Source of the DNA: Deltaproteobacteria bacterium
Lineage (GTDB): Bacteria; Desulfobacterota; Dissulfuribacteria; Dissulfuribacterales; QOAL01
Length of the DNA stretch: 50,197 nt
Assembly: GCA_024275145.1 (NCBI GenBank)
Contig: JAJRZR010000028.1
Span: 1-50,197, forward strand
Reading direction: 5' to 3'
Shown here piece by piece: positions 4,033 to 40,006 of the stretch. Position 1 is the first letter of the stretch; the number at the start of each line of letters is the position of its first letter. The translations under genes and the position numbers were made by a program. The notes under the pieces were generated by a model, which saw only the letters and a program-made list of their open reading frames with translations, searched no databases and was not told the origin of the DNA.

Positions 4033-5232
4033 ATGGAAAAAAGGAATGGAGTGGATCTCATAAGGCTGAGACAAGAGCTGGAAGAAGAGGAAAGGCAAAG
4101 GCTATCGTCCTATGCCACCTTGAGTACAAGTGCGGTAAGGGCAACGGAGGAACCGTTGCTTTTGAGTGGTCACAGGCTGTATTTTTCAGTAGACTCGGAC
4201 AGGATTCTCCACTCTCTGGCCTATGCCAGGTACATTGACAAGACCCAGGTATTTTCCCTCGTTCCGAATGATCATATTACCCACCGGGTGCTCCACGTCC
4301 AGATGGTTTCAAAGATCTCAAGGACGATAGCCCGCCTTCTTCGACTGAACGAAGATCTCACAGAGGCCATCGCCCTTGGACACGATATAGGCCATCCTCC
4401 CTTTGGTCATGATGGGGAGAGGATTTTGTCACGCATATGCGTAAAGTACGGTCTTCCACCCTTTCAACACAGCATTCAAGGTGTCAGGTTCCTCAGAGAG
4501 GTGGAGAGAAAGGGCAGGGGCTGCAATCTCACTCTCCAGGTCCTGGACGGCATCCTTTGTCATGATGGTGAGACCCACATGCAGTCGATAAAACCGCAGT
4601 CAGGCAAGACATTTGAGGTCCTGGACAGGCAGATCCTGGAAAAGGCCCTTGACCCGGCCAAAGACCTTACGCCTATGACACTCGAAGGGTGCGTGGTGAG
4701 GATGGCGGATGTCATAAGCTATGTGGGCAGGGACATAGAGGATGCAATAAGGCTTGGTTTGATATCCAGGGATCATATTCCCAGGATATGCCAGGAGGTT
4801 CTGGGAACCACAAATGGCACCATCGTCTATACCCTGGTGGAGGATGTCATAAGGGCCAGCCTGGGAAAGAATGAGATATCGTTCAGCTCGAGGGTGGCGG
4901 ATGCGCTGGCATTGCTCAAGGATTTCAATATGGAGTTCATATACATGAATCCTAAGATCAAGACAGAGGCCTCTAAGATAGAGGATCTGTATGGCCTCTT
5001 GTTCGACCATTTCCTTGATGATCTTGAAAAGGGACACATGGATTCGATCATTTTCACCGAATTTTTGAATGGGATGGACAGAGGGTACATGAATTCTTCA
5101 ACCAACGTAGAAATAGTGAGGGATTTCATTGCCGGTATGACAGATGCCTATTTTTTGAGGACCGGCCAATACCTGTTGATACCCCAGCCGTTGCCTTCCC
5201 GTTTCAAATCCCCGACCCGCCCGGTAGCTTGA
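4033..5232 (+). CDS. HD-domain deoxyguanosinetriphosphate triphosphohydrolase-like protein
   Basis: The 399-residue product belongs to the dGTPase-like HD hydrolases, which cleave dNTPs to nucleoside and triphosphate. The HD metal site is clear: HRVLHVQMV (first His), GHDIGHPPFGHDGE (His-Asp pair) and a downstream Asp in RMADVISYVGRDIEDA. The N-terminal STSAVRATEE and DRILHSLAYARYIDKTQVF segments are typical of the family's type with a modified N-terminus, for which substrate is less certain than for E. coli Dgt. TCAGGAGGG lies 8 bases before the ATG and fixes the start. It is divergent from clpB and ends 194 bases before lolD. The symbol dgt is withheld because substrate specificity cannot be read from sequence. 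Confidence 0.88.
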   Translation: MEKRNGVDLIRLRQELEEEERQRLSSYATLSTSAVRATEEPLLLSGHRLYFSVDSDRILHSLAYARYIDKTQVFSLVPNDHITHRVLHVQMVSKISRTIARLLRLNEDLTEAIALGHDIGHPPFGHDGERILSRICVKYGLPPFQHSIQGVRFLREVERKGRGCNLTLQVLDGILCHDGETHMQSIKPQSGKTFEVLDRQILEKALDPAKDLTPMTLEGCVVRMADVISYVGRDIEDAIRLGLISRDHIPRICQEVLGTTNGTIVYTLVEDVIRASLGKNEISFSSRVADALALLKDFNMEFIYMNPKIKTEASKIEDLYGLLFDHFLDDLEKGHMDSIIFTEFLNGMDRGYMNSSTNVEIVRDFIAGMTDAYFLRTGQYLLIPQPLPSRFKSPTRPVA

Positions 5233-5426
5233 TGTAATCACCTGGGCATGGAAATGCAGCCTCAAAAAGGGCGTAGTGTCAGGGTAAATAATCCGTTGAG
5301 CTTGATTGAGGTAGTTTAATTTGTTATCAGTGGTGCGCGGCTTATTACGGTTTGCCCGGATCAATTCGTATATCCTGGGGATATTGATGCTCAAGGACAC
5401 CGCCTCGTGCGGGCAGGTAACAGGTT

Positions 5427-6167
<741 letters not shown>

Positions 6168-6384
6168 TCAGTGGTAATCTCGGTTACACGGATTAGACAC
6201 AGGGCCGGTTACATGTTAGTTGGCTTTGATGTCGGAGTGCTCCAAGGGTGCAGATCATAATCCGGACAATCTGGTAATGAGTGATTCCATAATGGGGAAA
6301 AACATGTTGAGCATTTCTCTACGTAAGGATGTTCCTGCTGACAACTGGCTGATCTGTAGCGGAATTACAGCTGATCGTACTGGT

Positions 6385-25425: not shown

Positions 25426-26309
25426 TGTCTTTCCTCCTTCAAGGCATTTTTCATTTTTTCTTTCTGGGCAGCCATCATCTGGGTGGCATTGATTACGTTC
25501 TGCATGACCTTTTCAAAGGCCTCCGCCGTGTGGCTGTTAGGGTACATTGCAAGGATCGGTTTACCTGCATCCCCGGTGGTGACAATTCTCGGATCGACCG
25601 GTATCCGTCCAAGGAATGGGATGCCCGTCTCTTCTGAAAGTCGTTGTCCACCCCCGCGTTTGAAGACATCGATGGCCTTGCCGCAGTGGGGGCAGATCAT
25701 ACCGCTCATGTTTTCAACTATTCCAAGTATGGGCATATCGACCTGTTTGCAGAAATTGATGGATTTTTTCACGTCCAACAAGGAGACCTCCTGGGGCGTG
25801 GTCACCACCACGGCGTATGCATCAGGAATAGTTTGCGCCACTGTCATCTGCTCATCCCCGGTGCCTGGGGGGGCGTCGATGACCAGATAATCCAGTTTCC
25901 CCCATTCTATATCGTAGATGAACTGCCTTATGGCAGACATCTTCAGCGGTCCGCGCCACATGACGGCAGAATCCTTTTCTGGAAGCAACGGCTCCACTGA
26001 CATGAACTTGAGATTGGGCGAGTAGTAGACCGGCCCTACCGTACCATCGGGCCTCCTTTGAAGCTCGCCCCTTTCCACTCCGAGCATCTTGGGGACGTTG
26101 GGACCATGAAGGTCCACGTCGAGCAACCCGACGTAAAAATTTTGCAGGGAAAGACCAATGGCAAGATTTATGGAGACGGTGCTCTTCCCAACACCACCTT
26201 TTCCGCTCATTACCATGATCTTATTTTCTATCTGGCCGAGTTTTTTCTTTATCTTCCTGTCCTGCTCCGCAAGGACCGGATTAGTGGTCTTGCCCGTATC
26301 TTCCTTCAC
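25422..26309 (-). CDS. Mrp/NBP35-family ATP-binding Fe-S carrier
   Basis: The 295-residue product is a Mrp/ApbC P-loop ATPase. It shows the deviant Walker A GKGGVGKS, DVDLHGPNVPKMLG, the Walker B segment YLVIDAPPGTGDEQ, and the paired cysteines CPHC in ENMSGMICPHCG that hold a bridging Fe-S cluster in relatives. Such proteins pass Fe-S clusters to apoproteins. The start is GTG at 26309, supported by AGGAGG about 9 bases upstream. In the Desulfovibrio ORP locus an Mrp homologue stands next to the Orange Protein gene, as here. Confidence 0.92.
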   Translation of the reverse strand: MKEDTGKTTNPVLAEQDRKIKKKLGQIENKIMVMSGKGGVGKSTVSINLAIGLSLQNFYVGLLDVDLHGPNVPKMLGVERGELQRRPDGTVGPVYYSPNLKFMSVEPLLPEKDSAVMWRGPLKMSAIRQFIYDIEWGKLDYLVIDAPPGTGDEQMTVAQTIPDAYAVVVTTPQEVSLLDVKKSINFCKQVDMPILGIVENMSGMICPHCGKAIDVFKRGGGQRLSEETGIPFLGRIPVDPRIVTTGDAGKPILAMYPNSHTAEAFEKVMQNVINATQMMAAQKEKMKNALKEERQ

Positions 26310-26326
26310 TGAAAGAACCTCCTGAA

Positions 26327-27190
26327 TTAGAATTGTTTTTGCAATCTTTCCCAGATCTGCTTGATTTCCACGGCAGCCGGCCCACTCGATACCTCCATGA
26401 GCGGGATTCCCCTGACCAGGCTGTCTACGACATCCTCGTCAAAGGGAATCCTTCCAAGCATGGTGATATCATGGGCTTCACATGTCCTTTCCACCTCTTC
26501 GGCCATCTGCCTGTTCAGATCCCACCTATTTATACAGGCACAGGCAGGGGTTTTGAAGTGCTTTGCCAGACCTGCGACCCTTTTGAGATCATGGATACCT
26601 GAAAGTGTAGGCTCCGTGACGATCAACACCATGTCTGTACCTGAAAGGGACGCAATTACAGGACATCCTATGCCAGGTGGGCCATCTACTATAATCCATT
26701 CGGTCGTGGATTGCTCAGCCAGATTCTTTGCCTGTCTCTTCACTAGGCTTACCAGCTTTCCGGAGTTTTCTTCGCCTATGTCCAGCGCTGCATGAACCAT
26801 CTGTCCGTACTTTGTCCGTGATATATACCACCGGCCGCACAGGTTGTCCTTGAGAGAGATTGCCTTTTCCGGGCAAAAATATTCGCACACGCCACATCCT
26901 TCACAAGAGAATGGGTCTATTGACGCATGTTCGTCCACTGTTACTGCATCGAACCGGCACAGATCCGCACAGGTTCCGCATCCTGTGCAGGCCGACGGAT
27001 CTACATTTGCAGTAACCCCTGATTGAAACGGATGTTCTTCAATGATCTTTGGGGAAAGCAACAGGTGAAGATCAGCTGCGTCCACGTCGCAGTCGGCAAG
27101 GACCTTGCTTTGGGCAAGGCAGGCAAAGGCTGCGGTGACAGTAGTCTTGCCCGTGCCACCCTTTCCACTGAGTATCAGGATTTCTTTCAT
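26327..27190 (-). CDS. MinD-type P-loop ATPase with inserted two-cluster ferredoxin (first copy)
   Basis: The 287-residue protein begins KEILILSGKGGTGKTTV (deviant Walker A) and carries at about 62-110 an inserted ferredoxin domain with two CxxCxxCxxxC motifs (CTGCGTCADLC and CEGCGVCEYFC), enough for two 4Fe-4S clusters. The MinD fold resumes with WIIVDGPPGIGCPV. This architecture is known in the ORP locus and other anaerobe clusters, presumably coupling ATP to cluster transfer or electron flow. The ATG at 27190 overlaps the stop of its paralogue by 4 bases. The frame is open further upstream but only the part from 27190 resembles the family. Confidence 0.92.
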   Translation of the reverse strand: MKEILILSGKGGTGKTTVTAAFACLAQSKVLADCDVDAADLHLLLSPKIIEEHPFQSGVTANVDPSACTGCGTCADLCRFDAVTVDEHASIDPFSCEGCGVCEYFCPEKAISLKDNLCGRWYISRTKYGQMVHAALDIGEENSGKLVSLVKRQAKNLAEQSTTEWIIVDGPPGIGCPVIASLSGTDMVLIVTEPTLSGIHDLKRVAGLAKHFKTPACACINRWDLNRQMAEEVERTCEAHDITMLGRIPFDEDVVDSLVRGIPLMEVSSGPAAVEIKQIWERLQKQF

Positions 27191-28014
27191 TTGCCTATCT
27201 CCAGGATCAGGCGGGTGAAGGAGTCCTTGAGATCCTTGTCCACATCTGTCATGGGTATTCCCCTGGCATATGCCTCGGCTATCTCCCGGCGGAAGGGGAT
27301 CTTCATGTGGATTGGAATGCCTTGATCCATGCACCAATGCTCTACCGCGTCATTTCCGAGACCCGCCCGATTCAACACCACTCCATGGGGAACCTTGAGC
27401 CTTTTCAGCACCCCGGCCATTATCTTGAGATCGTGGAGGCCGAAGGGGGTGGGTTCGGTGACGAGGATGCAGTAATCCGTATCCCTGACTGCTACCATGG
27501 CAGGACAGGATGTGCCAGGCGGGCAGTCTATTATTACCGTCCTGGAGTCGGTAGAACGGGCCTTTACCGCCTTTATCAAGGGAGGTGCCATGGCCTCACC
27601 GATCCTGAGCCTTCCCTGTACGAAACCTATTCCCCTGGCCGTTCCAAGTTCAACGGTTCCTATCGAACGGTTTCCGGTTTCAAGTGCACCTTCCGGACAT
27701 ACGAGAAAACAGCCTCCACAGGAATGGCACATATCCGGAAAGGTCATTATGGTCTCGCCAAACACCGTAATGGCATTGAAGCGGCACATATCCCTGCATT
27801 TTCCGCAATAGGTGCACCGTTGCTGGATAACTACAGGGACTTCAAGGGTGATATCCTCGCAAAGGCGTATCTCTGGGTTCAGGAAAAAATGGGCATTCGG
27901 TTCCTCCACGTCACAATCCAGGAATTCAGTCTTGCCATGGATCGAAAGGGCAAGTGCCACGGCCACACTGGTTTTTCCCGTTCCGCCCTTTCCACTCGCT
28001 ATTGCTATCTTCAT
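27187..28014 (-). CDS. MinD-type P-loop ATPase with inserted two-cluster ferredoxin (second copy)
   Basis: A 275-residue paralogue of the next gene: KIAIASGKGGTGKTSV, then an insert with CTYCGKCRDMC and CHSCGGCFLVC, then VIIDCPPGTSCPAM. It has eight ferredoxin cysteines, and both copies have intact ATPase motifs, so a heterodimer is likely by analogy with the two adjacent ATPases of the Desulfovibrio ORP cluster. The ATG at 28014 follows the stop of the NifX-like gene by 4 bases. The frame reads on upstream within that gene but has no family resemblance there. Confidence 0.92.
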   Translation of the reverse strand: MKIAIASGKGGTGKTSVAVALALSIHGKTEFLDCDVEEPNAHFFLNPEIRLCEDITLEVPVVIQQRCTYCGKCRDMCRFNAITVFGETIMTFPDMCHSCGGCFLVCPEGALETGNRSIGTVELGTARGIGFVQGRLRIGEAMAPPLIKAVKARSTDSRTVIIDCPPGTSCPAMVAVRDTDYCILVTEPTPFGLHDLKIMAGVLKRLKVPHGVVLNRAGLGNDAVEHWCMDQGIPIHMKIPFRREIAEAYARGIPMTDVDKDLKDSFTRLILEIGK

Positions 28015-28018
28015 GAGG

Positions 28019-28456
28019 TCAATTTCTGCGGCATCCGCAGCCTCCCCGCCCACCGCCTCCAATGCCCCTTCTGCCGCCCATGCCCATTCCCTGCCCGGCG
28101 TGGGCGTTGCACCCGGGCCCATCGGCAGGGGTTGCCTTGCCGGAAACGAAGCTTTCCACGGCATCCTTCACCTTTCCTACTACATTGGATACAATCCTTA
28201 TCCCTGCCGCTTGGAGTACGGCGAATGCCTTTGGGCCAACCCTGCCTGTGATTATCGTTTCGGCACCGGCCTCGGCCACCTTTGTGGCAGCGCCTATACC
28301 CGCTCCGTGGGCGGCGTCCAGGGCTGCCTGGTTGTCTATTACCTGGGTAACCCTATCCAGATCGGTATCAAAGATTATGAAATAGTGTGCCCGGCCAAAT
28401 CTCGGGTCAACCTCGGATTCCATCTCCGTGCCCTGGGCGCTTATTGCGATTTTCAT
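28019..28456 (-). CDS. NifX/ORP-type domain protein, first gene of the operon
   Basis: The 145-residue protein has the same fold as the 25039-25425 product: KIAISAQGTEMESEVDPRFG, GAETIITGRVGPKAF and LQAAGIRIV. The DPRFGRAHYF segment is characteristic of Orange-Protein/NifX relatives. The last 35 residues are Gly/Arg-rich with three cysteines (GCN..., GGCGCRRN), an unusual tail that may bind metal or nucleic acid. AGGAGG lies 6 bases before the ATG. It heads the leftward seven-gene operon and faces the regulatory region. Confidence 0.88.
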   Translation of the reverse strand: MKIAISAQGTEMESEVDPRFGRAHYFIIFDTDLDRVTQVIDNQAALDAAHGAGIGAATKVAEAGAETIITGRVGPKAFAVLQAAGIRIVSNVVGKVKDAVESFVSGKATPADGPGCNAHAGQGMGMGGRRGIGGGGRGGCGCRRN

Positions 28457-28595
28457 GGCTTGCCTCCTGGTTTACAGATTGTCATTTGTGCAGGGTAAAA
28501 ACTTTCTTCGAAAAGGCTTGTTTTTTCCATTGCATGGGAATAAACAATAAAAAAACGTTCTGATTTTAAAACAGAAAAAAGATGAATTATTCATT

Positions 28596-28609
28596 TTGAA
28601 CTATTTCAA
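28596..28609. promoter_or_regulatory. FNR/CRP-like palindrome TTGAA-N4-TTCAA
   Basis: TTGAACTATTTCAA is a perfect 5-bp inverted repeat with a 4-base spacer, the geometry of FNR-type sites (TTGAT-N4-ATCAA). It lies 140 bases upstream of the leftward operon. Regulator identity is inferred only from shape. Confidence 0.45.
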
Positions 28610-28652
28610 GTTAGGGGTAGTTTTAGTGCTTGTCAACATATTTTTTTGGGCG

Positions 28653-28668
28653 TATGATTAATATCATA
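28653..28668. promoter_or_regulatory. Second palindrome TATGAT-N4-ATCATA
   Basis: This perfect 6-bp inverted repeat with a 4-base spacer has the same geometry as the site at 28596, about 57 bases away. It may be a second operator for the same or a related regulator. Confidence 0.45.
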
Positions 28669-28912
28669 GTTCAAAATAATGAGACTAATGCTCATAATCT
28701 ATAGGCCTTGGCGGGGATATTCATCCTTGTCCCCATGTATCCAGGATCGTGCAGCTCGACGAGTTCGTTGCCGGATGTAATCGCGCGAAGTTAGACATGC
28801 GGTCGCAGTGTGCACATCCAACTGCCCTGCCATGTGCTTGAAGACAGGAAGTACGGCATGCCCGCATGTCTTTCGTCTTGAGTAGATTGGTTATGGAAAC
28901 AGGAGGTAGCTA

Positions 28913-30610
28913 ATGGGTAAAAGAATAGTGGTAATAGGTGGAGTGGCCTGCGGCCCCAAGGCCGCGGCAAGGGTGAAGCGTCTCGATCCAGAGGCGGAGG
29001 TCACGGTAATTGAAAAGGGGGACGAGATCTCCTATGGGGCCTGCGGACTTCCCTTTTACCTCGAGGGGGAGATTAGTGACGTTGGTGAACTTACCACAAC
29101 CCCGGTGGGCGTACCAAGGGACGTAAATTTTTTTAGGGCAGTGAAGGGGGTGGAGGTAAAAACCGGTACGGAAGCGGTTTCCATAGACAGGCAAAAGAGG
29201 ATCGTCAAGGCCAGGCGGCTGGTTGATGGCATGGAGGAATCGTTACCCTATGACAAGCTGGTGATAGCAACCGGCAGCACCCCGGTGCGGCCTCCTATAC
29301 CAGGTATCGATGCGGCAGGCATACACTGTCTCAAGACCCTGGAGGATGGCAGGGCTATCAGGGGGGCCATGGAGGGTTCTTCCACCAAGAAGGCCGTAAT
29401 CGTGGGCGGTGGACTTATAGGTCTCGAATGCGTGGAACCCCTTGTAAAGGGGGGATTTGAGGTCCACGTAGTGGAGAAGCTCCCTTGGCTCCTGCCGGCC
29501 TTGTTGGATGAGGAAATGGCAATACACCTTGAAAAGCACCTGCTATCAAAGGGTGTCATGGTGCATTGCGGGGACGGGGTGGCCAGCTTCGATGCGGATG
29601 GGAACGGACGGGTTGCACGTGTGGTCACAGAAAAGACCTCCATAGAGGCAGACCTGGTAATACTGGCGATCGGGGTAAGGCCTGAGATAAAACTTGCACA
29701 GGAGGCTGGTCTGGAGGTGGGTAAGGCAGGGATAGTCGTGGATAAACACCTGCGGACCTCCGATCCGGATATCTATGCCGGCGGGGATTGTGTGGCCTCG
29801 TATAACATGGTCACGGGACAACCCGTGTACGCCCCGATGGGATCCGTTGCAAACAAACATGGCCGGGTAATCGGTAACAACCTTGCTGGCTGGGATAGCA
29901 CATTCAGCGGTGTGTGTGGCACAGGGATATGCAGGATAATGGGGTTCAACGTGGCAAGGACCGGCCTTACACAGCGGGATGCGGAGTCGCAGGGCCTTTC
30001 CGTGGTTTCAGCCTTGAACCCCGGGCCTGACAGGCCTCATTACATGGAAGGCAGCAAGCTCATCCATGTAAAACTTGTCGCTGAATCATATTCCGGGCGG
30101 GTATTGGGGGTACAGATCCTGGGGCCGGGAGAGGTCATGTCAAGGGTGGATACTGTAGCGACCCTCATAAAGGCAGGTGGCACGGTAGACGATCTGGCGG
30201 ACGTGGATATGGCCTATGCCCCACCGTTTTCTCCAGCGGTCGACAACGTGATAGTAGCAGCCAATATTATACAGAACAAGATGGACAGGGTGGCACGTTC
30301 CTATTCCCCGGCCCAGGTCAAGAAAAAGCTTGAGGCCGGGGAGGATTTCATACTGCTCGATGTGCGGACCCCGAAAGAGGTTGAGGCCATGAGCCTTCCG
30401 TATGAAAATATCGTCTATATTCCCCTGGGAAAGTTGAGGGAAAGGGCAGATGAGCTTCCCAGGGACAGGGAGATAATCTGCCTGTGCAAGATATCGCTCA
30501 GGGGATACGAGGCTGAAAGGATACTGGTGGGCAAGGGCTTTGATCCACAGCTGACCAGTTTTCTCGATGGTGGTATCGTGGCCTGGCCCTATGAAAAGAA
30601 CGTAAAATGA
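28913..30610 (+). CDS. CoA-disulfide reductase-like flavoprotein fused to rhodanese domain
   Basis: The 565-residue product has an FAD/NAD(P)H disulfide-oxidoreductase module (about 1-445) and a C-terminal rhodanese domain (about 460-560). FAD motif IVVIGGVACGPKAAAR, NAD motif AVIVGGGLIGLE and the single redox-active Cys44 in YGACGLPFY mark the CoADR/Npsr type, which reduces CoA-disulfide, CoA-persulfide or polysulfide. The rhodanese loop keeps a cysteine (Cys525 in CLCKISLRG). Such fusions handle sulfane sulfur in anaerobes. It is transcribed divergently from the ORP-like operon. AGGAGG lies about 7 bases before the ATG. Confidence 0.9.
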   Translation: MGKRIVVIGGVACGPKAAARVKRLDPEAEVTVIEKGDEISYGACGLPFYLEGEISDVGELTTTPVGVPRDVNFFRAVKGVEVKTGTEAVSIDRQKRIVKARRLVDGMEESLPYDKLVIATGSTPVRPPIPGIDAAGIHCLKTLEDGRAIRGAMEGSSTKKAVIVGGGLIGLECVEPLVKGGFEVHVVEKLPWLLPALLDEEMAIHLEKHLLSKGVMVHCGDGVASFDADGNGRVARVVTEKTSIEADLVILAIGVRPEIKLAQEAGLEVGKAGIVVDKHLRTSDPDIYAGGDCVASYNMVTGQPVYAPMGSVANKHGRVIGNNLAGWDSTFSGVCGTGICRIMGFNVARTGLTQRDAESQGLSVVSALNPGPDRPHYMEGSKLIHVKLVAESYSGRVLGVQILGPGEVMSRVDTVATLIKAGGTVDDLADVDMAYAPPFSPAVDNVIVAANIIQNKMDRVARSYSPAQVKKKLEAGEDFILLDVRTPKEVEAMSLPYENIVYIPLGKLRERADELPRDREIICLCKISLRGYEAERILVGKGFDPQLTSFLDGGIVAWPYEKNVK

Positions 30611-30929
30611 TCATGTTCATCCCGGGTTATGCACTTCAAACGAAATCATCCAACATTTGAAGCCACAAGGTGCCCGCAATTTTGCCGAATTTGCTGCGTT
30701 GTCGGCTACTTGAAGTACACAAGTACGTCAGCGTGTCCTTCCGCCTTGCATCTTCGACAAACTTGCCAGCTGCATAATCCGGGTTCATATGATGCCGCCC
30801 CCAATGATGCGTAAGATTACAGTCCAGGGGGGCAGGATTTGGGCGCTGTACGGCAAAAAACAGGGGATGTTTCCTTTACAAGCCTTCACAGGGTACTTTG
30901 AGTACAGGTAGGTATATTTTTTGTAACCA
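30611..30929. other. Intergenic region carrying an R1 repeat element
   Basis: About half of this 319-base gap is the R1 element at 30621-30783. Short open frames across it translate the repeat and are not considered genes. Nothing else is recognisable in the rest. Confidence 0.6.
30616..30788 (+). repeat. R1 MITE-like element with TIRs and 5-bp target duplication
   Basis: The element (30621-30783, 163 bp) begins CCCGGGTTATGCA and ends with its inverted counterpart TGCATAATCCGGG. It is flanked on both sides by TTCAT (30616-30620 and 30784-30788), consistent with a 5-base target duplication. Inside lie the inverted segments TTTTGCCGAA and TTCGACAAA. It carries no gene. Related copies occur at 36856-37022 and 46194-46358, with fragments elsewhere. 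Confidence 0.75.
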
Positions 30930-32288
30930 CTATCTGGCATCTGCCATGCCCTGTGAAGGCTCCAGGGACAGGCTGTGATCGATCAACCACTGGACGGCCT
31001 CTGTCCTCCGTCTTTTCGTGAAGCCGGATGCCCGCGGCGTTTTTGTTCCATGTAATATGCGAACAGGACGGGAGGTAGCCCTTTCATGTGTGCCCTTATG
31101 TGGACGATTTCTATGCCGTTTCTTTGAAGCCCGTCTATTCCCAGGCTGCAAAGCACGATTCTCCCACCTCGACACCTCTTCCTGGTCCCTTGGGACCGGT
31201 ATGGGTAAAAGGCCGGCAAGCAGCCCGGCGGCCAGGCACCAGTCCAGGTCGAGGCCAGGCAGCCCGGCAAGGGTGGCGTCCTCCTCAAGAAGTGACTCGG
31301 GCGCGGCCATGAGCCTTGAAATCTCAGGATCCTTGAGCCTGCCAAGGTCTATGTCATGCGGTCCTGTCACCAGTGCCTTGAAGTAGGCCCCTCTGGCCCA
31401 CCCGGTCCCTGTGCTCTGTCAGAAAATAGATGTTATCGGCTACCGCTTGCCCCTTTTTCTCTTCCATGTCCTGGCGAATAGCATGGGCATCCTGTGCAGC
31501 GTCGAGCAGTCCCTGGTTCCTTCTTATCTCTCTTTTCAGCCCCTGTATTCGCAAACGAAGTTCATCCGGATCGCTATAGCCAGCAAGGTCAGGAGGCTCT
31601 ACGGCCGAAAATGCCAAACGATAGCCGTTGCCCGAGAACCTGTCATCTTCTATCCTGGCGGACAGATGGGTCAATTCGTTCCGCAGGCCCTCCGGTTCCT
31701 TTAGTTCGAGCCCGCCCTCGCCAAATGGTAGCCCCATGAGGTCCGGGTTGAGGAAGATACCCGCAAGAGCTTCCGTATCAAACCATTCTTTGAGCCTGGA
31801 GAAGGCCAGATTGTCCAGTCCCAGAAGCCTGGCCTCCAGGTGTGAAAGTTCCCGTTTCTTCCTGGTGATCCGTTTTTTATAGATCTCTGGGGATTCTTCA
31901 GACGCACCCTTGAGCCTTGCCGCCGCTTCCTCTATCTGCCTTTTCGTCAAGACGTCCGCTATACGTGAAGCGTTCGAAGTCGTACCCCTTAAGTGGTCCA
32001 GGGCCGTGAACGCCAAGCATCTGGAAGCCGGTAGGTGCCCGGAGTTCGAAGAGGATGTAGCTGTTGGGATCGGGAAGATAGTAACGGCGTGTTTCCTCCA
32101 TGGATCTTGAGAAATGCATCCCCCTCTGTACAGTCTATATACAGAAATTGTAGCGCGGCGATAAGCGAGGTTTTCCCAACGTTGTTTGGCCCTACAAGGT
32201 GTAATGGGACGTCGATTTCGACCTCAGCATAGTCGTATTTGCCTGAATGCAACAGGACAAGGCGAATTGGCCCATTCAGGATTTCCAC
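30930..32288 (-). pseudogene. Decayed P-loop (SMC/AAA-like) ATPase gene, at least four frameshifts
   Basis: Coding-like sequence runs through changing frames. It starts at 32288 with EILNGPIRLVLLHSGKYDYAE and a P-loop (LVGPNNVGKTSLIAALQF). It shifts near a run of five G (32120-32124) to MHFSRSMEETRRYY...SYILFEL. Near 32000 it shifts again into a coiled-coil frame (ending about 31390), then to AYFKALVTGPHDIDLG...LDLDWCLAAGLLAGLLP (to about 31170), then to RIVLCSLGIDGLQ...FAYYMEQKRRG. Repaired, it would encode about 430-450 residues. The P-loop region resembles condensin/Mks-like or RecN/SbcC-like ATPases. The gene upstream is MksE-like and the two reading frames would have overlapped by 13 bases, so this was an operon. 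Nearby genes are intact, which favours true decay over poor sequence. Confidence 0.72.
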
Positions 32289-32757
32289 GATGCCTCCCGC
32301 TGTGCTACATCGGCTCCCTCATTCCCGCCGATGCCGTCTTCATCCATTTCGAGTACCTGGTGGCAGAGATCGACGAACCTGAGCACAGGGGGATTGAAGG
32401 AAAAGGTGTCTGCCCGGCCCGTTTGGCAAAGCCAAAACGTTCTAGGTTCCTGACAATGTCCATCAACCCAGTCATGCCTGACACGCCAGCCTCCTCCATA
32501 TACTTCCTGTAACGTTCCACCTGCAGGTAGGGTAGGGCAGACAAGCTGAATTTTCTGGTCATGAGGGACTCCTCCACCACCTTTCCGCGGTCTGAGAGCC
32601 ATTCCACCAGTATAAACATGAATACGGCCATCCTCTCGCTCCTGTCACTAAGGCTGCCCATGCCGTGGAAATAGTAAAAGCCCCTCGGGTGGCTCTCAAG
32701 CCTGAAACCTAGTCTGGAGAAAAGCCCTTGGAGGATTTCCAGATTGTCCCTGAGCAC
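32276..32757 (-). pseudogene. MksE-like condensin accessory gene, frameshifted and probably 5'-truncated
   Basis: The first frame (GTG 32757) encodes LRDNLEILQGLFSRLGFRLESHP...MAVFMFILVEWLSDRGK, with winged-helix-like content as in MksE/JetB proteins. It continues to NLERFGFAKRAG. The expected C-terminus then appears in the -1 frame as DTFSFNPPVLRFVDLCHQVLE and ends at 32276, so one base has been lost near 32421-32431 (GGGCCGGGC). The repaired length of about 160 residues is short for the family, and the coding frame runs upstream to the end of the methyltransferase gene, so the N-terminus may have been lost. No kleisin (MksF/JetA) or JetD gene is present. Confidence 0.68.
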
Positions 32758-32788
32758 CCATGAAAGGCGGTGGGTGGATTTACGGTAT

Positions 32789-33538
32789 CTATTGACGTGC
32801 GTTCTCCAGTTTCTTTCTCTCGGCCTGTTTCTTCACCAGGAGCAGGGTAAAATAAGATGGCTTGTCACCATCCCAATTTTCTATGTCCCAGGTAATGCTT
32901 TCGTCGGGCAGGCCGCAGTGGCGGACGGCCACGCAATTTTTTAGCAGGGATCTTTCCTTCAGTACCTCGACTATCGACTGGAAACGGCGGTATGCCTTTA
33001 GTACGACTATATTATCTGCGGTCTTCAGTATGCCTTCGATCTCCTGCCCGCCCCTGGCACCAGAACAGATGGCCAGGGATTGTTCCCCCTCGGCCAGGGG
33101 TAACACAAGCCTTGCGGCAGCGGCCTGATAGGAGGTTATTCCAGGTATTACCTGGATCGGGATGGAGGGCTGCATCTCCCTGAGATGGCGTATGAGATAG
33201 GTAAACGTGGAATAGGTTGAGGGATCGCCAAGTGTAATGAATGCCGCAGGCTCGGGTCGGTTGAGTACGTCCAGTACCTCTTTTGAATTTTGCCGCCAGG
33301 CCAGTTCCAGTGTCTTCCTGTCGCGTTTCATGGGGAAGTAAAGCGGGATGATCCGGCTGTCCGGGCCGATATGGGGAGCGGCGATCCTTGCCGCCCAGCT
33401 TTCCCCAGCGCCGTTCGATGCGGCGGTGAATACAGTCCTTACGGATTTGAGTATCCTTTCCGCCTTGATGGTCAGAAGTTCCGGATCACCCGGGCCAACG
33501 CCTATTCCGTAGAGTGTACCTGTTTTTTGCGTGTCCAT
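32789..33538 (-). CDS. cbiL: Precorrin-2/cobalt-factor II C20-methyltransferase
   Basis: The 249-residue SAM-dependent tetrapyrrole methylase adds the C20 methyl group in cobalamin ring synthesis. It has the family start LYGIGVGPGDPELLTIKAERIL, FITLGDPSTYSTFTYL, IPGITSYQAAAARL and the late VVLKAYR segment. In an anaerobe the cobalt-early CbiL reaction is more likely than aerobic CobI, but sequence alone does not settle this. The ATG at 33538 (MDTQKTG) is preferred to a longer frame beginning at 33607 on homology. A BtuF-like gene lies upstream on the same strand, 157 bases away. Confidence 0.9.
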   Translation of the reverse strand: MDTQKTGTLYGIGVGPGDPELLTIKAERILKSVRTVFTAASNGAGESWAARIAAPHIGPDSRIIPLYFPMKRDRKTLELAWRQNSKEVLDVLNRPEPAAFITLGDPSTYSTFTYLIRHLREMQPSIPIQVIPGITSYQAAAARLVLPLAEGEQSLAICSGARGGQEIEGILKTADNIVVLKAYRRFQSIVEVLKERSLLKNCVAVRHCGLPDESITWDIENWDGDKPSYFTLLLVKKQAERKKLENARQ

Positions 33539-33695
33539 TATCCTGAAGTTGTGCAATTTGCCAGGCTTGCCGAATATACGAGTCGACTGTGCAGGCATAC
33601 GTACCATGGTGCCTCGATTGTCCGGCGGGACCCTGTGGACAGATATCAGAAGGTCATCCCAAGGCTCTCTTCTGAAAGGGTTATCCCGTGGGTAG

Positions 33696-34628
33696 TTAGG
33701 GGATCCTAGTCCCTGGCTTGCGCTGTATGCTCGATATGTACGTTGCGAGTTCCTCCACTGCCTGGACCGAACGGGGACCCGGCCTGGAGTACAGGAATTC
33801 CTTTACCATTAAAACGTGCTTGTTCCTGATGGCCCCTATGAGTCGAAAATTTGGCCTGCTATAGATGCCATGGCCGCTTTTGTTCATGGGGCCGGTCTGG
33901 ACGATATATATATCCGGATCATCCGCAAGGATCCTCTCAAAGCTGTATTTCACAAGGCGCTTGTTGACCTTGACTATATTTTCCCCGCCTGCCAGGCGTA
34001 TTATGTCGTTTACGATATTTTTTTGGCCAGCCGCTATTAGGCTGGGATAGCTCACCTCGAAAAACACCCTTGGTCTGAAACGGTTGCCCCTGACCATGGT
34101 TTTGATCCTGTCAAGGCGTTTCTTGATATGGTTTTCAAGAGTTCTGGCCGCCTCCCTGTCCCCGCAGAGTATGCCCAGCCTATCGATTTCTGAAAAAAGG
34201 CCCTCGAAGGTGTAGGGATGGAACGTTGCTACCGGGATCCCCCTTGCCCGTAGTTGCCGGACAGTTAGCAGGGCCTCGGCCCTGCTGGAGCCCTGGATCA
34301 CGAGGTCTGGTTTCAGCCCGATTATGAGTTCGATGTTTGGTCTCATGTGGGTGCCGACCTTGGGCTTGGACCTGACCTCGATCGGCCACCTGTCTCGCTT
34401 GGTGCATCCAACCAGCCTGGAGCAGAGCCCCATAGCGCATATGGTCTCGGTCAATCCACCGTAGAGGCTGATAATACGCATCGCCGGGTTTTTCAGCGTG
34501 ACCTTGGTGCCCGTATCGTCGACTATCGAGACAGATGCCCTGGCTTGTTGGCACGCAAGTAGAAGCAGCCCTGCAATAATGACGAGAAGGATGATGCGGA
34601 CAAAGCCGTCATCTTCAATAGGTGACAT
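33696..34628 (-). CDS. BtuF-like cobalamin/siderophore-type substrate-binding protein
   Basis: The 310-residue product is a class III periplasmic binding protein. A hydrophobic export signal (VRIILLVIIAGLLLLAC) ends in a plausible lipobox (LLAC, Cys26) but could equally be cut after ARA. The mature part starts SVSIVDDTGTKVTLKNPAMRIISL and has GLKPDLVIQGSS and DPDIYIVQTGP as in BtuF/FhuD relatives. Its neighbour in cobalamin synthesis suggests a corrinoid ligand (inference). No BtuC/BtuD gene is in the window. The ATG at 34628 is chosen because the signal peptide then has a normal n-region, with CAGGGA upstream; the frame is open to 34670. No cobalamin riboswitch was recognised upstream. Confidence 0.83.
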   Translation of the reverse strand: MSPIEDDGFVRIILLVIIAGLLLLACQQARASVSIVDDTGTKVTLKNPAMRIISLYGGLTETICAMGLCSRLVGCTKRDRWPIEVRSKPKVGTHMRPNIELIIGLKPDLVIQGSSRAEALLTVRQLRARGIPVATFHPYTFEGLFSEIDRLGILCGDREAARTLENHIKKRLDRIKTMVRGNRFRPRVFFEVSYPSLIAAGQKNIVNDIIRLAGGENIVKVNKRLVKYSFERILADDPDIYIVQTGPMNKSGHGIYSRPNFRLIGAIRNKHVLMVKEFLYSRPGPRSVQAVEELATYISSIQRKPGTRIP

Positions 34629-34698
34629 ACTATCCCTGGATATTCCTATAATCCTTTCTTTTCCCCTCATCGAAACCGGCCTGAATGGATGGCCGTGT

Positions 34699-34765
34699 CT
34701 TCATCCCAAATCTTCATGCGGTCCACACCCTTGACTCAGCACCCCCGGACATGAAAAATCCAGCC
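34699..34765 (-). repeat. R2 intergenic repeat copy
   Basis: Read on the minus strand, GGCTGGATTTTTCATGTCCG continues to CATGAAGATTTGGGATGA and lines up with the copy at 37621-37683. Confidence 0.55.
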
Positions 34766-34780
34766 CTAGTACCAAGACCC

Positions 34781-34828
34781 TTCCGCCTTGAATCTTTGCC
34801 AGACTTGTGGAGCTGGATAATCCGAATT
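34781..34828 (+). repeat. R1 element fragment (right end)
   Basis: TTCCGCCTTGAATCTTTGCC, then AGCTGGATAATCCGAATTC, aligns with the right 48 bases of the 30621-30783 element. Only this end is recognisable. Confidence 0.55.
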
Positions 34829-34865
34829 CTTGCTCTGAGACACCGCAAGGTGTACGGAGGAGGGT

Positions 34866-36635
34866 TTACTTTGGGATACCCTTGGGCACCTCCACCAGGC
34901 AAGAGCTTATGAAGCGTCCGTCTATCTCTTCCGTATCAGGCAGTGAATGCAACTCCTCATAAAGGAATGACAAGGCTTCAAGAAGTTTCTGCCTGAATGC
35001 ATCCTGTCTTCTCTGGCTAGGCAAGGCAGTGGTCAATTTTTCCACGGCTCGTTCAAGGAACTTCAATGCCTCTGGCGAACGGCAGACATCGTTAGAGTTT
35101 CTGCCCCCGAACGCAAAATGTTTTTCCAGGATTTCCTTCAAGTGAGGCAGGGCTTTTTGATCAATGGAGTGTACCGTAAGATCCTTACCCAGTAAAGAGT
35201 TGGCGATAGCCGTGGTCAGGCCGTGAAGCCATGTGAATTCCCCATGGGTCAAAAAATTCGTGTTCTTCCAATCGAGGCTATCCTCCCATGAACGCCAGCC
35301 AGGCACTATATTTTCCATAATTTCTTTGAGTATCGCGGCATCTGCCAGGCCTCGTTGACAGTTTCGCAATTCTTCGAGGCTGGAAAATGGCCTGAACCTG
35401 CCTTGGCGATTGTCCCAATACATGGCCCTTTCAAGAAAGAGCCCCTGGATCAGAAGCGAAGTCGGTTCGGGCATCATGCCGATTGTGCCCTTGTCAGGGA
35501 AGATGGCCTCGGCCATGGCTACGACCTTTTTGATGGCCTGGTTCCCGGTTCGTATTATATCCTCCACCACGGTTGAGCCGAGTATATCGGCAGGGCCGCC
35601 CATACCGTCACTGCAAAGCAGTTCCAGCCCCAGGTTGCACAGGCTGGCTGCCTTCGTAAGTGCCCCCTTGAGGGCATCAGGATCATCCATGTCTACGAGA
35701 TCGGCCATTATTATCTTGTTGCTGGCCCCGATCCACTCCAATACCACCCTTTCCATTTTCAGTGCACCGGATAGTTCCTCAATGGCCTTGCGCAGGCAGG
35801 GATATGTACCCATGTAAAGGGTGGGAACAAAGGCCGGCATTTCCTCGTCCATGGATGTGCTTGCTCTCGGGTAACCTTTGACCGAGCGTACCCTGCCCCC
35901 TGGTACCGGGGCATAGATATCTAGGGAATCGTAATAATCAGGCACTCCTCGGTCGTTTAGCCGGCCCTTGCGAAGCCGTTGGGCCCCTTCGAGATCTGCG
36001 GTCCGGGTCTCCCACAGAATACTTTCCATAGTATCCCTGTAGAGGCCTGGTGAAAGATCGAGTATCTTCATAAGCAACCGGGCTATTAGGGGTTGAAGCT
36101 TCTCGTTCTTGAACTGGAAGAAATAGGTATCATCCAGTGTAAAACCTGGAAGAAGGTCCTTTGCCTCCTGGACGTCCATTTCGTCAGGCCTCTTTACTAC
36201 GTGTACAAAGGGCCTAAGCAGGGAAGGCAAAAGATACTCGTCTCTGCGTGAAATCCATGCGCACCAGCCAGATACCACCTCTTCACCGGTTTCGAAGAGG
36301 ATGAGAAGCCATGCGGCTATCTTGTCTGGCCTTAGTTCTGCTTTCAGCCACCAGTCGAGATCAAAGATGAATTGTAGTTGTTCCGCGGAAGCCAGCCTGA
36401 GAATATGTGTTGCATCCCTTGGTCCAACGGCCTTGATTGTCCAGAAGAGTTCCTCCACTGGCAATGCCCGTACCACCTGTCTTGCATTTTCTGACAGGAT
36501 TATTATTTCCTGTCGTTTTTCCCATGGAGCCAGTAGGACCAACGATATCTGGTCAGCCAGCGCAAGGCGATTCATGCGCCTTTCAGCCTGATCTTTGGGA
36601 AGGGAAAGTATCAGATCGTATGTTAGCTCGCTCAA
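34866..36635 (-). CDS. DUF6178 family protein
   Basis: The 589-residue, mostly helical protein resembles the DUF6178 family found in Desulfobacterota. Recognisable parts include LILSLPKDQAERRMNRLAL, PVEELFWTIKAVGPRDATHIL, FIFDLDWWLKAELRPDKIAAWLL (quoted in part) and EDSLDWKNTNFLTHGEF. There is no signal peptide, no clear membrane span and no catalytic motif I can identify; function is unknown to me. The TTG at 36635 is taken as start because AAGGAG lies 8 bases before it; the frame extends to an ATG at 36752 but that part lacks a ribosome-binding site and is not family-like. It is flanked on both sides by repeat DNA. Confidence 0.8.
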   Translation of the reverse strand: MSELTYDLILSLPKDQAERRMNRLALADQISLVLLAPWEKRQEIIILSENARQVVRALPVEELFWTIKAVGPRDATHILRLASAEQLQFIFDLDWWLKAELRPDKIAAWLLILFETGEEVVSGWCAWISRRDEYLLPSLLRPFVHVVKRPDEMDVQEAKDLLPGFTLDDTYFFQFKNEKLQPLIARLLMKILDLSPGLYRDTMESILWETRTADLEGAQRLRKGRLNDRGVPDYYDSLDIYAPVPGGRVRSVKGYPRASTSMDEEMPAFVPTLYMGTYPCLRKAIEELSGALKMERVVLEWIGASNKIIMADLVDMDDPDALKGALTKAASLCNLGLELLCSDGMGGPADILGSTVVEDIIRTGNQAIKKVVAMAEAIFPDKGTIGMMPEPTSLLIQGLFLERAMYWDNRQGRFRPFSSLEELRNCQRGLADAAILKEIMENIVPGWRSWEDSLDWKNTNFLTHGEFTWLHGLTTAIANSLLGKDLTVHSIDQKALPHLKEILEKHFAFGGRNSNDVCRSPEALKFLERAVEKLTTALPSQRRQDAFRQKLLEALSFLYEELHSLPDTEEIDGRFISSCLVEVPKGIPK

Positions 36636-36851
36636 GTATGTTCTCCTTGTTTCCGATAAAATATTAGGTAAGTGTTTGCCAGGAAAGTGCGTCTTTATCA
36701 GGGCCGTGTCCTCGTGTTTGAGGGGGCTCGGTTGCCGGCCACAGGGTACCATGAAAATACGGTCCGGTGCGGGCGGTGTTTTACAGAATTACGTATTTAC
36801 TTGTCAAACCGCAATCTTTTGTCAATTGTCGAGGATAGATCGTTTGTTCGT

Positions 36852-37026
36852 TGAACCCGGATTATGTAGCTCACAAGTTTGCCGAAGATGCAAGGCGGAG
36901 GACATGCAGACGTACTCGTGTATTTCAAATAACCGACAACGCAGCAAATTCGGCAAAATCGCGAGCCCCTTGCGGCTTCAAATGTTGGATGATTTCGTTG
37001 AGAAGTTGATGTACCTTTTGGGTGAA
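36852..37026 (-). repeat. R1 MITE-like element, second full-length copy
   Basis: On the minus strand this is a close relative of the 30621-30783 element: CCCGGATTATGTAGCTC at 36856 corresponds to its right end, and the segments TTTGCCGAA (36879-36887) and TTCGGCAAA are inverted copies of each other. The other terminus (about 37000-37022) is degraded to ACCTTTTGGG. TGAA flanks both sides (36852-36855 and 37023-37026), a possible target duplication. Confidence 0.68.
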
Positions 37027-37620: not shown

Positions 37621-37683
37621 GGCTGTATTTTCATGTCCGGGGCACCTGTGCGAGGGTCGGGTAACCATGAAGGTTTGGGATTG
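37621..37683 (+). repeat. R2 intergenic repeat copy
   Basis: GGCTGTATTTTCATGTCCGG, then CCTGTGCGAGGGTCGGG and AAGGTTTGGG. The 5' side adds a potential hairpin (TGAAAATGCA against TGTATTTTCA). Confidence 0.6.
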
Positions 37684-37718
37684 ATCCATTGGCCTATTGA
37701 TAACAACCGGGATGGAAA

Positions 37719-38396
37719 ATGATGAAAGAGGACCAGAAAAAGGGCACCAAGCCTCTCGAAATATTGATAGCAGAGGACGAGAAGAATATAGGTGATCTGC
37801 TGGTGGAATTGCTATCCAGGGATGACAGGAAGATAACGGTCGTTCACAATGGTCTTGAGGCCATTCGCAAACTGCGTCAGCGTCCCTTTGATCTGCTCAT
37901 CACTGATCTCATGATGCCTGAGGTCGATGGCATGGAGGTTCTTCATCAGGCAAGGAAGCTTTACCCACAGATACTGGTGATAATAATAACCGGATATGCA
38001 TCCCTTGAAACGGCTATACAGGCGGTAAAAGAAGGTGCATACGATTATTTGCGTAAGCCTTTCAGGCTTGAAGAATTGAAGATCAGCGTGGATAACGCCT
38101 GCGAGAGGATCCAGCTCATAAGGGAAAATCAGCTCCTTCTGGACCACCTCAGAAACGTGTGCCAACCCAAAGAGAAGGCTAGCAGCCAAGAGATCGAAAA
38201 AAAGGGGGGTGGAGGTACGAACAACAGCGGGTACCTGGGAATGGATTGGATACCCCCTTCTTTTTTCGAGCCGAGCAGTGGAAAGAACGGGGATGCCCTG
38301 GCAGAGCTGGAACGGCTTGGCAACTTGAGGCAACAGGGATTCATAACCGATGAGGAATTCGCGGCCCTGAAGAAAAAACTCTTGGATAGGATTTAG
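37719..38396 (+). CDS. Response regulator with REC domain and C-terminal SHOCT domain
   Basis: The 225-residue protein has a receiver domain at about 12-130 with the acidic pair in LIAEDEKNIG (Glu19-Asp20), phosphoacceptor Asp63 (LITDLMMPEVDG), Thr in IITGY and Lys in YLRKPF. There is no DNA-binding domain. A Gly/Ser/Pro-rich linker leads to a short C-terminal SHOCT-like helix pair (ELERLGNLRQQGFITDEEFA, near 195-214), usually a small oligomerisation module. REC plus SHOCT is an uncommon pairing. It lies 26 bases upstream of the HD-GYP gene and is probably co-transcribed. A second ATG follows the first directly. Confidence 0.87.
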   Translation: MMKEDQKKGTKPLEILIAEDEKNIGDLLVELLSRDDRKITVVHNGLEAIRKLRQRPFDLLITDLMMPEVDGMEVLHQARKLYPQILVIIITGYASLETAIQAVKEGAYDYLRKPFRLEELKISVDNACERIQLIRENQLLLDHLRNVCQPKEKASSQEIEKKGGGGTNNSGYLGMDWIPPSFFEPSSGKNGDALAELERLGNLRQQGFITDEEFAALKKKLLDRI

Positions 38397-38422
38397 ATCC
38401 CTTAGAATACCGGCTCCTGCCA

Positions 38423-40006
38423 ATGAAATATTTCGATTTGAATCTGATATCCGAAGGGGATACGAGGCGGCATCAGGCCAGGAACGATATCAAGGTCCTG
38501 ATAGTGGACGATGAAGAACAGGTTCGCCAGACACTTTCCTCTTACCTGGATGCCCTGGACGGCTTCGATGTATACGTGGCTGGTGATGCCCTGGAGGGAT
38601 TGGATACAGTCGAAAATAACGGGGGGATGGACTGTGTCCTTGTCGATATAAACATGCCGGGCATGGATGGCATAGAATTCGTAAGAATGCTCAAGGGGAT
38701 AGACCGGACCATCGTGGCCACTATCATTACGGGGCAGCCCTCCATGGATATAATCGTAAAGGCCATGAGGGCAGGTGCATCGGATTTTTTGACCAAGCCC
38801 TTCAGGTTCGATCAGTTCAGGGTGGCTGTTGAAAGGATGGTCAGGGAACGTAAGATCCTGCTAGAGAATCGTTTCCTGACCGAAGAGGTCAAGATCAAGA
38901 AGACCCTGGAGCAGATGAATATCCAGCTCGAGAAAAAGGTCCGGGAACAGGCCATTCTTTTCACCATCAGCGATGCCCTTGGTAAAACCAGGAGCACGCA
39001 GGATCTCTACCAGAAGGTGGTTGATCTCGCCAGGACATTGACCGAGGCGGAGCAGAGCCTGTTTTGGGTAGTGCATCATGAGAGGGGTGAGCTTTTACTG
39101 GTAGGTTCTAGCGGTCCGGATGATACCACACTTGAGAGGATCAGCCTTAATAACAAGGAACTTCCCTGGGTCCAGGTGGCGTTGGATGCCTTGCCTGTCA
39201 TAATCTCTGGCGGGGAAGGCAATGGAAACAACGGCAAAAAGGGGATCGAAGTCCCGGCACGGGAGCAGGTCATTGTACCTTTTACAATACGGGAGGAGGT
39301 CTTCGGGGTACTATCCGTAGTCGGGATCGCCAAGGGAAGGACCTTGGGAGAAGAGGCCCTTTTCATTTTGCATCTACTCGCTCAGAGGGCAAGTCTCACG
39401 GTTGAAAATCTGCTTCTCTATGACAGTATAACCTTGAATCTTCATGCCACCTTGCGGGCACTGGTCAGGTCGTTGGAGGCAAAGGATCCGTATACCAAAC
39501 TCCACTCTGAAAGGGTTACAGGCCTGGCCATCAACATTGCGAAGATCATGGGATGTTCCAGCGACGAATTGGATTCACTGCGTTTTGCAGGTCACCTGCA
39601 TGACATAGGGAAGATAGGTATAAGGGACCAGATACTCATGAAACCGGGTAAGCTGACCAGGGATGAGTATGAGATAATCAAGACCCACCCGGTAATAGGG
39701 GAAGAGATAGTAAGCCATCTTGGTCTGTTGCCTATCGAGAAGTCGATCATCAGGCACCACCATGAGCGTTGGGACGGGAGGGGCTATCCTGATGGCCTGA
39801 GGGGCCTTGAAATTCCAGGCTGTTCCAGGATATTGTCGGTTGCGGATACCTTTGATGCCATAACAACCCGCAGGCCATACCGAGATGCCGTGCCTGTTGA
39901 AATGGCAATGGAGGAGATAGAAAAGAATGCAGGATCACAATTCGATCCCGAGGTTGTAGAGGCGTTCAGGGTTTATATGATCGACAATTCTGCCAGTCAC
40001 CATTAA
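38423..40006 (+). CDS. Response regulator REC-GAF-HD-GYP (cyclic-di-GMP phosphodiesterase)
   Basis: The 527-residue cytosolic protein has a REC domain (DDEE at 29-32, phosphoacceptor Asp75 in VLVDINMPG), a coiled linker, a GAF-like domain (about 180-325) and an HD-GYP domain (about 345-510). The HD-GYP motifs HDIGKIG and HHHERWDGRGYPDG are complete, so it should hydrolyse cyclic di-GMP (established for the family) under control of phosphorylation. Its likely partner is a histidine kinase, either elsewhere or the degenerate one 490 bases downstream. Confidence 0.92.
   Translation: MKYFDLNLISEGDTRRHQARNDIKVLIVDDEEQVRQTLSSYLDALDGFDVYVAGDALEGLDTVENNGGMDCVLVDINMPGMDGIEFVRMLKGIDRTIVATIITGQPSMDIIVKAMRAGASDFLTKPFRFDQFRVAVERMVRERKILLENRFLTEEVKIKKTLEQMNIQLEKKVREQAILFTISDALGKTRSTQDLYQKVVDLARTLTEAEQSLFWVVHHERGELLLVGSSGPDDTTLERISLNNKELPWVQVALDALPVIISGGEGNGNNGKKGIEVPAREQVIVPFTIREEVFGVLSVVGIAKGRTLGEEALFILHLLAQRASLTVENLLLYDSITLNLHATLRALVRSLEAKDPYTKLHSERVTGLAINIAKIMGCSSDELDSLRFAGHLHDIGKIGIRDQILMKPGKLTRDEYEIIKTHPVIGEEIVSHLGLLPIEKSIIRHHHERWDGRGYPDGLRGLEIPGCSRILSVADTFDAITTRRPYRDAVPVEMAMEEIEKNAGSQFDPEVVEAFRVYMIDNSASHH

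What the first reader, a model, noticed from the sequence alone, without database searches (positions are those of the whole stretch)
30930..32757. Decayed condensin-like (MksE plus P-loop ATPase) system
An MksE-like gene with one frameshift is followed by a P-loop ATPase gene with at least four, within 1.8 kb. All neighbours with known functions are intact. If repaired, the ATPase would be only about 430-450 residues, much smaller than MksB/JetC, with a loop (GPNNVGKTSLIAALQF) unlike typical SMC proteins. Intact relatives may form a compact, little-studied genome-maintenance or plasmid-defence system.
Basis: partly seen in the sequence, partly recalled or inferred. Interest (0 to 1): 0.58.

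Follow-up and report, generated by a model that had tools for sequence, protein, structure and literature searches.

The report
Wreck of a known plasmid-defence operon
This stretch is the broken remains of an ordinary MksBEFG/Wadjet-type plasmid-defence operon, fused by a rearrangement to the tail of an unrelated gene; the apparent 'compact ATPase' is an artefact of large deletions, while intact relatives carry a full-length enzyme.

Summary
The broken genes are real; the idea of a compact ATPase is not. MksE (one frameshift, 5' end lost) is followed by four non-contiguous pieces of one SMC-type ATPase (MksB/JetC). They match residues 1-53, 55-117, 350-516 and 871-889 of a 923-residue relative. 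The parts between, including signature and Walker B, are missing. From 31405 to about 31034 the sequence is instead the C-terminal part of an unrelated TPR-like gene, intact at the same syntenic place in a same-genus genome; collinearity breaks at 31405 and resumes at 34888. The 430-450-residue length is the sum of leftovers. Intact relatives carry kleisin, MksE, a 904-962-residue SMC ATPase and a nuclease whose predicted fold matches MksG/JetD. Of 24 homologous loci none encodes a compact ATPase. The own genome has no kleisin or nuclease gene left and keeps a full-length housekeeping SMC. Verdict: decayed member of a known kind. The one mildly novel point is that the intact clade diverges from PADLOC's Wadjet models.

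The parts
32300..32760 (-). mksE (KITE subunit) remnant, residues 34-187 of 200; frame change near 32400; the 5' end (residues 1-33) is lost against the end of cobI
   Evidence: tblastn of the intact relative: 32760-32389 (65% identity, E 5e-54) and 32437-32300 (46%); PF21980
32127..32291 (-). mksB (SMC ATPase) remnant 1: residues 1-53, Walker A GPNNVGKTS
   Evidence: 79% identity, E 9e-24
31940..32126 (-). mksB remnant 2: about residues 55-117, in another frame
   Evidence: 61% identity over the piece 32191-31940, whose first part is the overlapping wrong frame; E 9e-29; frames printed
31453..31944 (-). mksB remnant 3: residues 350-516, in a third frame; residues 118-349 are missing before it
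   Evidence: 30% identity to G005 (E 1.3e-19) and 34% to G011 (E 1.6e-23)
31393..31449 (-). mksB remnant 4: residues 871-889; residues 517-870, with signature (807) and Walker B (837), are missing before it
   Evidence: ungapped BLOSUM62 score 49 against a maximum of 35 in 2000 shuffles; motif positions
31405..31406 (.). joint between the inserted block (mksB end) and the TPR-like gene; collinearity with G001 stops here and resumes at 34888
   Evidence: blastn window against G001
31034..31406 (-). C-terminal remnant of an unrelated TPR-like gene (residues about 173-316 of 325) with a frame change and loss of about 18 residues near 31155
   Evidence: intact copy at L018:4759-5736
   Evidence: sequence; same repeat in G001
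32789..33607 (-). cobI (precorrin-2 C20-methyltransferase), intact; inside the block absent from G001 at this place
   Evidence: TIGR01467, profile positions 1-230 of 230
33696..34670 (-). periplasmic binding protein (BtuF/TroA-like), intact; inside the same block
   Evidence: PF01497

Best explanation
The segment is a pseudogene mosaic. An MksBEFG (JetABCD/Wadjet-type) operon lost its kleisin and nuclease genes. Its mksE was truncated and frameshifted. Its mksB lost about residues 118-349 and 517-870 by deletion and is frameshifted between the remaining pieces. A rearrangement placed the remains, together with cobI and a binding-protein gene, over the 5' half of a TPR-like gene. It does nothing as a system today. 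Shown here: the pieces, their order, the deletions, the joint and the absence of the partner genes. Inferred from the literature on MksBEFG/Wadjet: when intact, the SMC motor with kleisin and KITE subunits recognised plasmids and the Toprim nuclease cut them. Inferred: its loss is the ordinary turnover of a patchily distributed defence operon, tolerated because the housekeeping SMC is retained.
For: An intact four-gene operon in G005 of the same family, kleisin 409 - MksE 200 - ATPase 923 - nuclease 287 residues, named by NCBIfam/Pfam Mks models and JetD_C. Window pieces map in order on that ATPase. Own genome: kleisin absent, nuclease absent, TPR 5' half absent, SMC_prok_B full length (899 bits). 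Collinearity with same-genus G001 at 82-87% on both sides, broken at 31405 and resumed at 34888; the TPR remnant is only 72-79% identical there. The same operon is broken at different places in G006 of the same family: it keeps ATPase residues 118-349, which the window has lost, but has many stops. Patchy occurrence: ATPase matches in 6 of the 19 genomes of the family among the 119 searched.
Against: The central ATPase piece is only 30-34% identical to the relatives, against 61-79% for the N-terminal pieces, so its assignment rests on order and E-value. That the frameshifts are biological was not tested against reads. The direction of change at the joint (window derived, G001 ancestral) rests on the intact TPR gene in one same-genus genome.
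Confidence: 0.95

Rival explanations
1. A compact ATPase system: a naturally short (430-450-residue) P-loop partner of MksE, here frameshifted.
Against: Walker B and signature are absent from the window because residues 517-870 are gone. The last third is another gene. Of 24 loci with this P-loop, 18 have an uninterrupted 904-962-residue ATPase, 4 are cut by contig ends, 1 is split into 363 + 539 and 1 is the decayed G006 copy.
Confidence: 0.02
2. Assembly or sequencing error in an intact operon.
For: Draft genome in 120 contigs; frameshifts can be errors.
Against: Errors of one or two bases cannot remove about 232 and 354 codons, the kleisin and the nuclease, or join mksB to a TPR gene. The four neighbours tested are intact. 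Kleisin and nuclease are nowhere in the genome.
Confidence: 0.03
3. The MksE remnant is kept and used alone, for example as a DNA-binding or interfering fragment.
For: It is still 65% identical to its relative over 124 residues.
Against: It has lost its first 33 residues and is frameshifted, and its kleisin partner is absent.
Confidence: 0.02

Closest known systems
MksBEFG / EptABCD / Wadjet (JetABCD) plasmid-defence operon
   Same: Gene order kleisin-KITE-SMC-nuclease in intact relatives, as in mksFEBG (PMC10123090, passages read); nuclease fold matches C. glutamicum MksG 8b7f (Z 14.0) and P. aeruginosa JetD 7til (Z 12.3).
   Different: The window copy lacks kleisin, nuclease and most of the SMC. 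The intact clade has a shorter SMC (904-962 residues, against 1111 for C. glutamicum MksB in PMC10123090) and a shorter nuclease (about 280-295 residues where the start is clear, against solved chains of 368-374).
Chromosomal MksBEF condensin (NCBIfam NF040857-NF040859)
   Same: The SMC of G005 matches the 926-position NCBIfam model over residues 8-871 (222.8 bits), and the kleisin and MksE match their models too.
   Different: All three score below the curated equivalog cut-offs. The intact clade has a fourth nuclease gene; PMC10586767 describes P. aeruginosa MksBEF as probably derived by loss of JetD (passages).
MukBEF
   Same: The MksE profile matches solved MukE chains (E 1.1e-5).
   Different: No MukB or MukF chain was matched at the thresholds used.

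Membership tests
MksBEFG/Wadjet, window copy as a working member | Kleisin gene (MksF/JetA) | tested here: not met
   No match in the own genome with the G005 kleisin
MksBEFG/Wadjet, window copy as a working member | Toprim nuclease gene (MksG/JetD) | tested here: not met
   No match in the own genome with the G005 nuclease
MksBEFG/Wadjet, window copy as a working member | Complete SMC ATPase with Walker A, signature and Walker B | tested here: not met
   Walker A present; residues 517-870 with both other motifs deleted
MksBEFG/Wadjet, window copy as a working member | Intact KITE subunit (MksE/JetB) | tested here: not met
   PF21980 match but truncated and frameshifted
MksBEFG/Wadjet, intact relative G005 (L017) | Kleisin, KITE, SMC and nuclease genes in that order | tested here: met
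   same order in the loci as far as contigs reach
MksBEFG/Wadjet, intact relative G005 (L017) | Nuclease with TopoVIA/Toprim fold and acidic residues | tested here: met
   AlphaFold2 model (pLDDT 84.2), Z 14.0 to MksG 8b7f over 153 residues, rmsd 2.6; VEN.E and D[YF]DP motifs conserved in 18 of 18 aligned sequences
MksBEFG/Wadjet, intact relative G005 (L017) | Restricts plasmids | not testable with these tools
   Needs an experiment
Wadjet types I-III as modelled by PADLOC 2.0.0 | Matches JetA, JetB, JetC and JetD models | tested here: inconclusive
   JetC1 in 7 of 9 SMCs (best 9.4e-10), JetD1 in 7 of 10 nucleases (best 1.3e-8), JetB1 in 2 of 9 MksE, JetA in 0 of 11 kleisins

The most novel reading that the evidence does not exclude
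The intact relatives form a separate, largely unannotated nuclease-armed branch of MksBEF: a four-gene operon with an SMC of 904-966 residues and a nuclease of about 290 residues, found in chromosomes of several phyla and on plasmids. It resembles the chromosomal MksBEF condensin more than PADLOC's Wadjet types, and so could represent the state from which chromosomal MksBEF lost its nuclease.
Probability: 0.35. Interest if true: 0.35.

Novelty: new member of a known kind. Interest (0 to 1): 0.12.

Why it matters
It removes a false lead: there is no evidence here for a compact condensin-like system. It shows how deletion plus fusion to a neighbour can imitate a new short gene in frame-by-frame reading. 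The by-product, a divergent four-gene Mks/Wadjet clade that defence-finding models catch only partly and that plasmid records annotate as hypothetical proteins, may be useful to people who catalogue defence systems.

Tried and rejected
Compact ATPase: rejected. Sequencing error as sole cause: rejected. A third conserved partner next to the pair: what lies downstream in the window is the unrelated TPR-like gene. In G006 a distant TPR homologue (30% identity) also lies beside the decayed mks operon, but in G001, G005, G010 and G030 it does not, so I do not treat it as a component. Profile searches of the intact nuclease, kleisin and ATPase against PDB sequences gave no credible relative; only MksE hit MukE. 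This says nothing against the fold match of the nuclease. In Foldseek's own alignment the whole-chain TM-scores to the MksG, JetD and topoisomerase VI chains are low (TMq 0.36-0.42); only the Toprim half (model residues 106-287) is matched well. No phage record matched the intact ATPase. Rfam gave nothing in the window. Paper searches: MksBEF+MksG+plasmid, Wadjet+MksBEF terms, DUF7281 (none), MksB+MksF terms, Wadjet type IV or divergent (one unrelated paper). None of these listings shows a paper on this clade, but only titles and abstract openings were seen, except for passages of PMC10123090 and PMC10586767.

Full report
Observation. On the minus strand, 32757 to about 32300 encodes an MksE-like protein (PF21980, 68.4 bits; NCBIfam NF040858 60.7 bits, below its cut-off of 400) with one change of frame near 32400. 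It is followed at 32291 by a frame with the P-loop GPNNVGKTS, after which the coding potential moves through several frames. The four neighbours tested are intact.

What the broken ATPase is. NCBIfam's 926-position Mks ATPase model matched the read-through query with 92.7 bits in two stretches. Genomes of the same family hold the intact gene: G005 (L017:3697-6468, 923 residues) and G011 (L016:111-2861, 916 residues). Mapped on the G005 protein, the window holds residues 1-53 (79% identity), about 55-117 (61% over the aligned piece), 350-516 (30%) and 871-889. The last piece is short, but its ungapped score of 49 was not reached in 2000 shuffles (maximum 35). About 302 of 923 residues remain. 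The signature (residue 807) and Walker B (837) lie in the deleted part (that these two motifs are the signature and Walker B is my reading of the sequence), so no repair of frames alone could give a working ATPase.

What the tail is. From about 31406 downward the sequence is not the ATPase. It matches residues about 173-316 of a 325-residue TPR-like protein whose intact gene lies in G001, of the same genus, between the pyridine nucleotide-disulphide oxidoreductase and a DUF6178 gene. These are the same two flanking genes as in the window. DNA collinearity with G001 is 86% (25837-28704), 86% (28901-30606), 82% (34888-36671) and 87% (37623-39988); the TPR remnant aligns at 79% (31159-31405) and 72% (30872-31161), and nothing aligns between 31405 and 34888. 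In G001 the TPR gene and the DUF6178 gene are about 0.1 kb apart. So in the window a block of about 3.5 kb (mksB and mksE remains, cobI, a periplasmic binding protein gene) stands where G001 has the 5' half of the TPR gene. G001 carries cobI-like sequence elsewhere (C189). The TPR remnant has itself lost about 18 residues with a frame change.

The rest of the operon. With the G005 proteins as queries, the own genome has no kleisin (4 of 60 genomes matched) and no nuclease (5 of 60). MksE by Pfam model: 5 of 60 genomes, one place in the own genome. The ATPase matched 8 of 119 genomes, of which G027 and G105 are weak; within the own family it is 6 of 19. G006 of another genus of the family carries the same operon, also broken (stops in kleisin and ATPase), but at other places. 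The own genome keeps a full-length SMC_prok_B (899 bits, positions 1-1181).

Intact relatives and the 'compact' idea. ATPase frames: 18 of 24 uninterrupted, 904-962 residues; 4 of 24 cut by the contig end (L076, L080, L083, L084); 1 split into 363 + 539 (L078); 1 decayed (L079 = G006). MksE was found in 24 of 24 and kleisin in 23 of 24 (L078 begins inside or just before mksE). The nuclease was found in 19 of 24; the 5 misses (L064, L076, L080, L083, L084) all have contigs ending in or just after the ATPase. There is no compact ATPase among them. The scan's patterns were two short peptides around the P-loop, so a compact ATPase without them would not have been seen.

The fourth gene. The nuclease-like protein just reaches Pfam JetD_C in G005 (22.3 bits, cut-off 22); 8 of 10 aligned members match JetD_C at E up to 0.01. 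Toprim-like acidic motifs (VEN.E and D[YF]DP.G; the link to Toprim is recalled knowledge) are conserved in 18 of 18 aligned sequences. The AlphaFold2 model (pLDDT 84.2, pTM 0.63) aligns over residues 106-287 with C. glutamicum MksG 8b7f (Z 14.0, rmsd 2.6, 153 residues), archaeal topoisomerase VI-A (1d3y, Z 12.7) and P. aeruginosa JetD 7til (Z 12.3). Whole-chain Foldseek TM-scores are low (0.36-0.42).

How it worked and what it is now. From PMC10123090 (passages): mksFEBG encodes kleisin, KITE, SMC ATPase and a TopoVIA-like nuclease, and acts in plasmid defence. From PMC10586767 (passages): JetABC is thought to extrude DNA loops and trigger JetD on small circles. The intact relatives here have all four parts, so the same action is a reasonable inference, but it was not tested. 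The window copy has lost two of the four genes, and both remaining genes are broken: a dead locus.

Naming. NCBIfam calls the 412-position kleisin-type model MksB and the 926-position ATPase model MksF. The paper cited uses MksF for the kleisin and MksB for the ATPase. I follow the paper.

Novelty. The finding is a decayed member of a known kind. PADLOC 2.0.0 models recognise the intact clade only in part: JetC1 in 7 of 9, JetD1 in 7 of 10, JetB1 in 2 of 9, JetA in 0 of 11 (members chosen by me from the 24 loci for alignment). On three plasmid records looked at out of 10 with a match (Salinibacter ruber pSR76, Pseudomonas sp. Leaf58, Neptuniibacter halophilus) the same four-gene arrangement, found with profiles built here, is annotated as hypothetical proteins. 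That clade, not the window, is the part with any novelty.

Noticed in passing
window 30639-30787 (+) and 36852-36999 (-): An interspersed imperfect-palindrome repeat of about 150 bp. A search with the 171-bp stretch 30630-30800 gave 43 places (itself and partial copies included) in the own genome and 11 in same-genus G001. No Rfam match; its single-strand folding is no better than shuffles (z -0.44).
   Followed up: partly
L019 (G006:C71:46000-58000), 4815-8782: Decayed copy of the same mks operon in another genus of the family: stops in kleisin and ATPase, shortened nuclease.
   Followed up: partly
L087, L088, L089 (plasmid records of Salinibacter, Pseudomonas sp. Leaf58, Neptuniibacter): Four-gene kleisin-MksE-SMC (929-966 aa)-nuclease (291-336 aa) operons annotated as hypothetical proteins.
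   Followed up: partly
NCBIfam NF040857 and NF040859 (seen with L017:7060-8289 and L017:3697-6468): Model names MksB and MksF appear swapped relative to the naming in PMC10123090.
   Followed up: partly
window 31034-31406; L018:4759-5736; L019:8937-9929; L020:617-1567; L021:1022-1996: An uncharacterised TPR-like protein of about 325 residues, weak TPR matches only, scattered in 11 of 60 genomes searched including weak and partial matches.
   Followed up: partly
window 31406-34887: Block of mks remains, cobI and a binding-protein gene that is absent from the same syntenic place in G001; how it got there was not resolved.
   Followed up: partly
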